Shown in pieces: positions 29,001-42,771 of a stretch of 42,771 nt of DNA. Source of the DNA: Balneolaceae bacterium (GTDB lineage Bacteria; Bacteroidota; Rhodothermia; Balneolales; Cyclonatronaceae); NCBI GenBank assembly GCA_007694035.1, contig RECM01000249.1, forward strand, positions 1 through 42,771, given 5' to 3'. The notes beneath the pieces were generated by a model that worked only from the letters and a program-made list of their open reading frames with translations, was not told the origin of the DNA and made no database searches. A program made the translations under genes and the position numbers. Each line of letters opens with the position of its first letter. Position 1 is the first letter of the stretch.

Positions 29001-29369
29001 GGGGATGTACTTGGTTTCGACGGGCTGAGTACTATCACAGGTTGCATGCCGAGTTTACCCCTTATGTACTCGTAAAAAAACCTTTGGGATACTTAATTGT
29101 AAAAGGCAACTCTTACGATTACCGAATGGCTGCCTAACAGCCGTTCCGTTCTGTCTGCTGCCCGCCCGGCGGCGGTTTGCAGAGCGACGCTAATGCCGGG
29201 CTGGCAACAACTATCGGCTGTGTAGTTGGTGCGAGAAATTAGCAGCCTGGCTTCAGGGCGCTGTGCTGTCCGGCTACCCCTGAAGTAAGATTCAACCCGA
29301 CAGATAAGCATGTAGACGCTTGCTGGTTTGCCTTCCCGGACCCGGGTTCGACTCCCGGCATCTCCACCA
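29001..29369 (+). ncRNA. ssrA: tmRNA (transfer-messenger RNA)
   Basis: 5' GGGGATGtacttggtttcgacgggc and 3' gggttcgactcccggCATCTCCACCA pair as an acceptor stem; internal tag ORF GTA AAA GGC AAC TCT TAC GAT TAC CGA ATG GCT GCC TAA. Confidence 0.95.
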
Positions 29370-29373
29370 TATG

Positions 29374-29415
29374 AAAAAGCCTTTGTAATGATCCATATTG
29401 CAAAGGCTTTTTTTA
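29374..29415 (+). terminator. Rho-independent terminator after tmRNA
   Basis: aaaaagcctttg...caaaggcttttttt hairpin with T run. Confidence 0.85.
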
Positions 29416-29458
29416 TTGATGGAAACATTTAGTTGGAAATGATGAGTTCTCGTTTCAT

Positions 29459-29926
29459 ATGGATGATAATTTTTTCAATATTTCAGAAGCTGAAGATAAT
29501 GTGAGCAGTCTTTTAAAAGAAAAAATTGTTGACCTTGAGATACAAAGAATTTTAAGGGTTCAAAGGAATAATGAATTATTTTACTTAGATTTTAGTGTCG
29601 AACAATCTGAAATAAGCGATTATTTGCTTGATTCACATGCAAACCATACAAAACCACAAAAAGAAATTATTCAGGTTTACGACAGTAACTTTAATCTTTT
29701 GGGCTCAAGTCGAACATCAGATATTGGTAATAAAGATGGCAATGTTAGACTATTGAGTTGTACCTCAGATAATGTTTTGTCGTGCGTTGAAGATCATTGT
29801 GAAGATGCTGGACCTCTTTTATGTGCGGGCTGCCTTGTAGGTTGGAAATGGTGTTTAACAACATTGACAGTTATATGCGCAGCTGAGGTAGCATTTGAGG
29901 TTGAACGTGATATATATTGTGAATAA
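29459..29926 (+). CDS. Hypothetical precursor with Cys-rich C-terminal domain (bacteriocin-like candidate)
   Basis: 155 aa; hydrophilic N-terminal ~100 aa then CTSDNVLSCVEDHCEDAGPLLCAGCLVGWKWCLTTLTVICAAEVAFEVERDIYCE with 8 Cys. Confidence 0.6.
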   Translation: MDDNFFNISEAEDNVSSLLKEKIVDLEIQRILRVQRNNELFYLDFSVEQSEISDYLLDSHANHTKPQKEIIQVYDSNFNLLGSSRTSDIGNKDGNVRLLSCTSDNVLSCVEDHCEDAGPLLCAGCLVGWKWCLTTLTVICAAEVAFEVERDIYCE

Positions 29927-29948
29927 TAATAAATAAACGGTTTATACT

Positions 29949-30260
29949 ATGAATATGATTGCTTTAATTCTTTTGATAGTACTGGTTGTATTTGGATATC
30001 GCATATACCAGTTAAAAAATTATCTAAATGAACTTGAACATTACAGTGACTTAAGATTGATTCTCCCCCTAGGATTTTATATCAGAACATCTATTGGAAT
30101 GTTCTGCCTAAGTTTATTTTTAATAGCACTTAGTCCTGTTCCTGCCCTTTATGCAGTTACAGCTGTATTTGGTGTCTTAATTGATACTCTATTTACTGTT
30201 TTATTTTATTCAGCTAAGTATAGTAGGAAGCATGCCAGTTCTTCAATGGTTCATGCATGA
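29949..30260 (+). CDS. Small multi-TM membrane protein, possible immunity/accessory partner
   Basis: 103 aa with several hydrophobic segments; 22 nt downstream of the Cys-rich precursor. Confidence 0.55.
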   Translation: MNMIALILLIVLVVFGYRIYQLKNYLNELEHYSDLRLILPLGFYIRTSIGMFCLSLFLIALSPVPALYAVTAVFGVLIDTLFTVLFYSAKYSRKHASSSMVHA

Positions 30261-30331
30261 TAAGAACTTCTAACACCGGTCAGACATCTTATTGATGGTG
30301 TGAGAAAACCATTTTTTAAAATACACAATTC

Positions 30332-30375
30332 ATAAAGTGCACAGGGTTTTATTCCTTGTGCACTTTATCTTTTAT
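30332..30375 (+). terminator. Rho-independent terminator-like hairpin
   Basis: ATAAAGTGCACA...TGTGCACTTTAT followed by ctttt. Confidence 0.7.
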
Positions 30376-30756
30376 CTATACTTCATAATATTCACTACTT
30401 AACGAGGGTAAGCGATTGAAGTAGCTTGAGATAGTTGACTGACCCATAAATTATTTGGCAATTAATATCATTTCGGTTTTGCTGTGATCAACCATGCCGG
30501 TGAGTAAGTGGAAGATATATGTAGATTTTGCTGCAGTACACTTTAAACGAGATCCATAGAATTGGTTTAATAGCCATACCCATATATCAAAGTGATAAAT
30601 GGTTATAATAGACCCATTCAGACCACCATATTTCATTCGAGATTTGCCCGTAATAGCTGTTTGACCGATTTGGTGAATACTGTTTAACCAAAGGGTTCAG
30701 AGCGCTTAGAAGCTAAATTCGAGGTCCTTGATGAAAGTGCTTCTTCAGCAGCCTGA

Positions 30757-31182
30757 TTACAGTGTAATAGGTGGGTCTACTTCCAAGGAATTAATCACTT
30801 GGATTAATTCATCAATATTGCCAAAATCAATCGGTACAGCTCTATTCTTATCAATCAAAAGACTATTCCCTCTTGTTGTCGGTTCATTCCAATACTTTTC
30901 AGGATGATCCAAACACGCAACAATTCTTTTATTTTTCTCCGCAAATCCAACGGTATGCATAGTTCCCCTTTTAACATCAGTTTCTACAACTACAATACAG
31001 TTACTTAGTCCAGCTTGAATTCTATTCCGTTGTACAAATGAATTTTTAGACAAGTTATCCCCCACAGAATATTCTGATAGAAGTACTCCACTGTATTCCA
31101 GCAATTTCTCAGCCAGTTCGATATTCACCTTCGGGTAGATCCGATTGAGACCTTGTGCTAATATAAAGTAGCCGGTAATCAT
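30757..31182 (-). pseudogene. DprA/Smf-like Rossmann domain, N-terminally truncated
   Basis: 'GLNRIYPKVNIELAEKLLEYSGVLLSEYSVGDNLSKNSFVQRNRIQAGLSNCIVVVETDVKRGTMHTVGFAEKNKRIVAC' matches the C-terminal half of the DprA core; typical N-terminal part not found upstream. Confidence 0.65.
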
Positions 31183-31401
31183 GGCCCGCTTAATGGCACT
31201 GCAGATATGTCCCTTTTCGGATATCCGGAGAGGGCAGGGAAGGTGCTTTTCTGAATCTGTTTGTTATTACTGAAAAAAATAAGGTAACGGAATAAAACAA
31301 AGCTATATGAAAGTTTCAAAATAGTTATATATTATTTCATGTTTATTGTTCCTTGTTCTAGCCCGTAATAACCTATAGTGCAAATCCCTAAATGCCAACC
31401 C

Positions 31402-42471: not shown

Positions 42472-42472
42472 G

Positions 42473-42545
42473 TACCGCGTACGGGATTCGAACCCGTGCT
42501 ACCGCCGTGAAAGGGCGACGTCCTAGGCCTCTAGACGAACGCGGC
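42473..42545 (-). tRNA. tRNA-Glu (TTC)
   Basis: GCCGCGTTCGTCTAGAGGCCTAGGACGTCGCCCTTTCACGGCGGTAGCACGGGTTCGAATCCCGTACGCGGTA. Confidence 0.95.
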
Positions 42546-42562
42546 ATTGAAGACAAAAGGAG

Positions 42563-42637
42563 GGAGCCCAATGGGATTTGAACCCACGGCCTCCAGGGCC
42601 ACAACCTGGCGCTCTAACCTACTGAGCTATGGGCTCC
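42563..42637 (-). tRNA. tRNA-His (GTG)
   Basis: GGAGCCCATAGCTCAGTAGGTTAGAGCGCCAGGTTGTGGCCCTGGAGGCCGTGGGTTCAAATCCCATTGGGCTCC with the extra G-1:C73 pair. Confidence 0.95.
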
Positions 42638-42719
42638 GTGTTCCTGTAAAATGCTGGATCTGATGCACAAGGGTATGGATAATACCGGGTGATACATCTG
42701 TTCAGCCTTTACAGTGTGG

Positions 42720-42771
42720 TACCGCGTACGGGATTCGAACCCGTGCTACCGCCGTGAAAGGGCGGCGTCCT
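42720..42771 (-). tRNA. tRNA-Glu (TTC), second copy, truncated by window edge
   Basis: Near-identical to 42473-42545 through the anticodon arm. Confidence 0.92.

What the first reader, a model, noticed from the sequence alone, without database searches (positions are those of the whole stretch)
29459..30260. Candidate bacteriocin-type precursor with 8-Cys C-terminal domain plus membrane partner, inserted directly downstream of tmRNA
The 155-aa protein has a ~100-aa hydrophilic N-terminal region and a 55-aa C-terminal domain with Cys spacing C-7-C-4-C-7-C-2-C-6-C-7-C-13-C, ending one residue after the last Cys. A small multi-TM protein follows 22 nt later. The layout (large propeptide + Cys-rich hydrophobic C-terminal peptide + membrane protein) resembles halocin C8-type precursors in organisation, but I cannot claim homology. 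It lacks an obvious classical leader.
Basis: inference. Interest (0 to 1): 0.7.

Follow-up and report, generated by a model that had tools for sequence, protein, structure and literature searches.

The report
Cysteine-rich bacteriocin-like gene with membrane partner
A small, recently acquired pair of bacterial genes sits just behind the tmRNA gene and is best read as a new kind of Cys-rich antibacterial protein with a membrane protein that protects the producer, although no activity has been shown.

Summary
The 155-aa ORF (29459-29926) ends in an 8-Cys domain with exactly the stated spacing. A 103-aa, three-helix membrane protein follows 22 nt later. A sister species of the same genus has tmRNA and its terminator in the same place but lacks the pair: window 29415-31275 (35% G+C in a 50% window) is an insertion. 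A second, diverged copy of the same ~940-bp cassette lies elsewhere in this genome. There the precursor is a pseudogene (no start codon, one TAA, one TGA) that still shows all eight Cys codons, while the membrane partner is an intact ORF. Relatives of the partner alone occur in five other genomes of the order; the precursor occurs in no other genome searched. This pattern (dead or missing toxin, kept partner) fits a bacteriocin and immunity cassette. It is not a halocin C8: the curated model does not match, it has 8 Cys rather than 10, and no Tat signal; there is no GG leader and no C39 exporter in the genome. Export, processing and killing are unshown. Best reading: an orphan family of halocin-C8-like organisation, about 45% likely to be a bacteriocin/immunity pair.

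The parts
29001..29369 (+). tmRNA gene (ssrA), tag VKGNSYDYRMAA; insertion boundary lies just after it
   Evidence: ARAGORN; Rfam RF00023, 153.5 bits
29374..29416 (+). terminator hairpin of tmRNA (AAAAAGCCTTTG...GCAAAGGCTTTTTTT); shared with the same-genus genome up to 29414
   Evidence: sequence; comparison with G001
29415..31275 (.). DNA absent from the sister species (183 bp of unrelated sequence there); 35% G+C against 50% for the window
29459..29926 (+). precursor: about 98-aa hydrophilic, acidic N-terminal part plus 57-aa C-terminal 8-Cys, partly hydrophobic part
29949..30260 (+). membrane partner, 103 aa, three predicted helices; candidate immunity protein
30332..30368 (+). terminator hairpin of the pair (15-bp stem), also present at the end of the second copy
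29465..30402 (+). extent of the cassette shared with the second copy in this genome (75% identity up to 30314, 84% for 30318-30402; an IS is inserted between these two stretches in the other copy)

Best explanation
A mobile two-gene cassette encoding a bacteriocin-type precursor and its membrane immunity protein. Shown: an accessory, low-G+C, two-copy cassette with its own terminator; a precursor with a more constrained N-terminal part and a C-terminal part whose eight Cys are invariant; a three-helix membrane protein kept intact where the precursor has died and found alone in related genomes. Inferred: the N-terminal part is a propeptide or chaperone that keeps the Cys-rich part inactive in the cytoplasm; after release (route unknown, possibly lysis or an unlinked exporter) the roughly 57-aa C-terminal peptide oxidises to four disulfides and attacks the membrane of related bacteria; the membrane partner protects the producer and, when orphaned, still protects against relatives' peptides.
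For: Cys pattern and layout. 8 of 8 Cys retained in the diverged copy against 57% identity at the other C-domain positions (chance 0.57^8, about 0.011). Nonsynonymous change is lower in the N part (pN 0.13) than in the C part (0.21; Fisher P 0.051) and the partner (0.28; P 9e-5 against the N part) at similar dS for the two precursor parts. Dead precursor next to intact partner in copy 2. Solo partner homologues in G018, G020, G048, G435, G438 without a precursor, in differing contexts. Both sites empty in the sister species. Small membrane immunity proteins are the norm for several bacteriocin classes (PMC6957408, PMC2806384). Similar gene order in haloarchaeal halocin C8-like loci.
Against: No signal peptide, GG leader or Tat motif seen; no C39 peptidase in the genome, 89.5% complete. 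No match in Pfam, NCBIfam, PHROGs, PADLOC or PDB. C part is net -8, whereas many antimicrobial peptides are cationic. Precursor known from one genome only, so constraint rests on two sequences, one a pseudogene. Solo partners could equally have an unrelated function. Precursor model has pLDDT 40.
Confidence: 0.45

Rival explanations
1. An intracellular conflict module (toxin-antitoxin or anti-phage type): the Cys-rich protein acts inside the cell, perhaps with a metal or as a redox switch, and the membrane protein is its target, anchor or antitoxin.
For: No export signal on the precursor; the insert also carries a remnant of a ShosA/DprA-type defence gene, so this is an accessory or defence site; one CxxC (C122/C125) and an H-C pair (H113/C114) could bind metal.
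Against: No PADLOC model matches the pair; only one CxxC in an 8-Cys domain with a hydrophobic stretch; no known toxin domain.
Confidence: 0.2
2. The partner is an independent small membrane protein of the order with its own unknown role; the Cys-rich ORF is a lineage-specific gene that happens to be co-transcribed and is being lost.
For: Partner found alone in five genomes; precursor in one genome only; copy 2 precursor is dead.
Against: The two genes travel together with a shared terminator in both copies; precursor shows dN/dS 0.34 and invariant Cys.
Confidence: 0.22
3. A small secreted or envelope structural or signalling protein (Cys-rich, non-toxic) with a membrane partner for its export or sensing.
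For: Cys-rich C-terminal domain; membrane partner.
Against: No secretion signal; patchy, horizontally acquired, degenerating distribution suits conflict genes better (inference).
Confidence: 0.13

Closest known systems
Halocin C8-like domain family (TIGR04449; ProC8/HalC8)
   Same: Large N-terminal part followed by a C-terminal Cys-rich, partly hydrophobic domain at or close to the end; small membrane ORF about 20-25 nt downstream in two haloarchaeal loci read here.
   Different: No HMM match (positive control 61.5 bits, this protein none at E<=10); profile-profile probability 0.4%; 8 Cys with other spacing instead of 10; no Tat signal; N part about 98 aa instead of about 200 or more.
Membrane immunity proteins of two-peptide (class IIb) bacteriocins, e.g. 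LagC
   Same: Small hydrophobic protein coded next to the bacteriocin, one to four membrane helices (PMC6957408).
   Different: No detectable match of the partner to any Pfam or NCBIfam family or solved structure; the precursor here has no GG leader and is one polypeptide.

Membership tests
Halocin C8-like (TIGR04449) | HMM score at or above the 24-bit cut-off | tested here: not met
   No hit at E<=10; HalC8 sequence from memory scores 61.5 bits; no place in this genome matches
Halocin C8-like (TIGR04449) | Ten-Cys C-terminal peptide | tested here: not met
   Eight Cys, different spacing; compare L044/L045
Halocin C8-like (TIGR04449) | Tat signal on the precursor | tested here: not met
   N-terminus MDDNFFNISEAEDNV has no twin-Arg or hydrophobic segment; no earlier ATG/GTG/TTG in frame (read by eye, no signal-peptide program); Tat export of ProC8 per PMC11509114
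Halocin C8-like (TIGR04449) | Precursor cleaved to N-terminal immunity part and C-terminal peptide | not testable with these tools
   needs protein work
Double-glycine-leader (class II) bacteriocins | GG-type leader before the Cys-rich core | tested here: not met
   No GG in the 155 aa
Double-glycine-leader (class II) bacteriocins | C39-peptidase ABC exporter | tested here: not met
   No PF03412 in the genome, 89.5% complete
Bacteriocin immunity membrane protein (general kind) | Small multi-helix membrane protein in the same transcription unit as the precursor | tested here: inconclusive
   Layout fits: three helices, 22-nt gap, shared terminator; transcription itself not tested
Bacteriocin immunity membrane protein (general kind) | Confers protection on a sensitive cell | not testable with these tools
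   experiment needed

The most novel reading that the evidence does not exclude
A new bacteriocin family: a leaderless 155-aa precursor with an 8-Cys C-terminal peptide, carried with a membrane immunity protein on a minimal ~940-bp cassette without dedicated exporter genes, which reached the organisation of halocin C8 independently.
Probability: 0.35. Interest if true: 0.55.

Novelty: new variant of a known kind. Interest (0 to 1): 0.4.

Why it matters
If true, it adds a sequence family that no library searched here detects, and it shows an orphaned-partner pattern (toxin dead, protector kept) that can be tested with two gene copies from one genome and five solo partners from relatives.

Tried and rejected
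Halocin C8 membership: rejected. Classical tmRNA integration with a duplicated 3' end: no direct or inverted repeat at the insert ends. The shared terminator as a cassette-capture repeat: occurs only in the two copies. Precursor relatives sought in viral, plasmid, phage and genome-contig collections and in whole genomes (60 relatives and 396 of the phylum by the single protein; 129 of the order and 245 of the class by profile; the draws overlap): none beyond the two copies. Cys-rich ORFs next to solo partners: none in linked position. PDB sequence and fold search of the partner: nothing significant.

Full report
What is there. The 155-aa ORF (29459-29926) and the 103-aa ORF (29949-30260) exist as described, 22 nt apart. 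The eight Cys lie at 101, 109, 114, 122, 125, 132, 140 and 154, which gives the stated spacing, and one residue follows the last Cys. The seven-Cys DNA pattern occurs once in the window and in none of 100 shuffles. tmRNA is at 29001-29369 with its own terminator hairpin at about 29374-29416.

Insertion. In a genome of the same genus (G001) tmRNA and its terminator are 95% identical, homology stops at window 29414 and resumes at 31276; 183 bp of other sequence lie between. The inserted stretch is 35% G+C against 50% for the window. No repeats mark its ends. It also carries a truncated DprA-type gene whose best PADLOC match is ShosA.

Second copy. The same genome holds a second copy (contig C141, locus L009, minus strand) with 75% DNA identity over the pair and 84% over the following terminator; between the two stretches an IS with a transposase ORF has inserted. 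That site too lacks the cassette in G001. In the second copy the precursor has no ATG/GTG/TTG before the residue-40 equivalent and has TAA and TGA inside the Cys domain. All eight Cys codons are still there. The membrane partner is an intact 103-codon ORF.

Constraint. dN/dS between copies is 0.27 for the precursor N part, 0.49 for its C part and 0.52 for the partner. The N part changes least; the difference from the partner is clear (P 9e-5), that from the C part is borderline (P 0.051). With one pair of sequences, one of them a pseudogene, this is suggestive only.

Partner family. Profile searches find the partner alone in five further genomes of the same order (G018, G020, G048, G435, G438) and in none of the 396 genomes sampled across the phylum apart from this one. 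It has three predicted helices (pLDDT 74) and no known relative in Pfam, NCBIfam or PDB. The window copy departs from residues that all five solo members share (alignment columns 21 R, 46 E, 47 Q, 86 Y), while copy 2 keeps them (though copy 2 departs at column 20). No precursor or linked Cys-rich ORF accompanies the solo members.

Comparison with halocin C8. Profile comparison with three haloarchaeal precursors gives no significant match. Organisation is similar: two haloarchaeal loci have a 68-aa hydrophobic ORF about 20-25 nt downstream. So it may work like halocin C8, but it is not a member of that family by any test that could be run here.

Mechanism. The best-supported account is a bacteriocin precursor with a membrane immunity protein on a minimal mobile cassette. 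The retention of the partner where the precursor is dead or absent is the strongest argument; orphan immunity genes are known for bacteriocins (PMC2806384) and small membrane immunity proteins are common (PMC6957408). Export is the weakest step: no leader, no Tat signal, no C39 exporter. The precursor structure model is not usable (pLDDT 40). I give this account 0.45.

Noticed in passing
window 30757-31182 (-): Truncated DprA/ShosA-type gene (C-terminal part only; Pfam DNA_processg_A positions 103-207 of 212, PADLOC ShosA E 1.3e-29) inside the same insert, possibly a remnant of an anti-phage toxin-antitoxin locus.
   Followed up: partly
L009 5144-6139 (+): Transposase ORF of an IS (by eye IS5-like) inserted between the copy-2 membrane gene and its terminator; the IS appears to have GGGGCCT/AGGCCCC ends beside TTAA.
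   Followed up: partly
L021 346-4332, L029 789-3090: Solo relatives of the membrane partner in two genomes sit among genes that look by eye like 6-bladed beta-propeller proteins (one weak DUF5128 match); in Bacteroidota such genes sometimes neighbour small secreted peptides (from memory).
   Followed up: no
L030 22-572: A pair that looks by eye like BrnT/BrnA toxin-antitoxin genes lies upstream of the solo membrane partner in this genome.
   Followed up: no
window 42472-42771 (-): tRNA-Glu, tRNA-His and a second, cut-off tRNA copy 98% identical to part of tRNA-Glu at the contig end.
   Followed up: no
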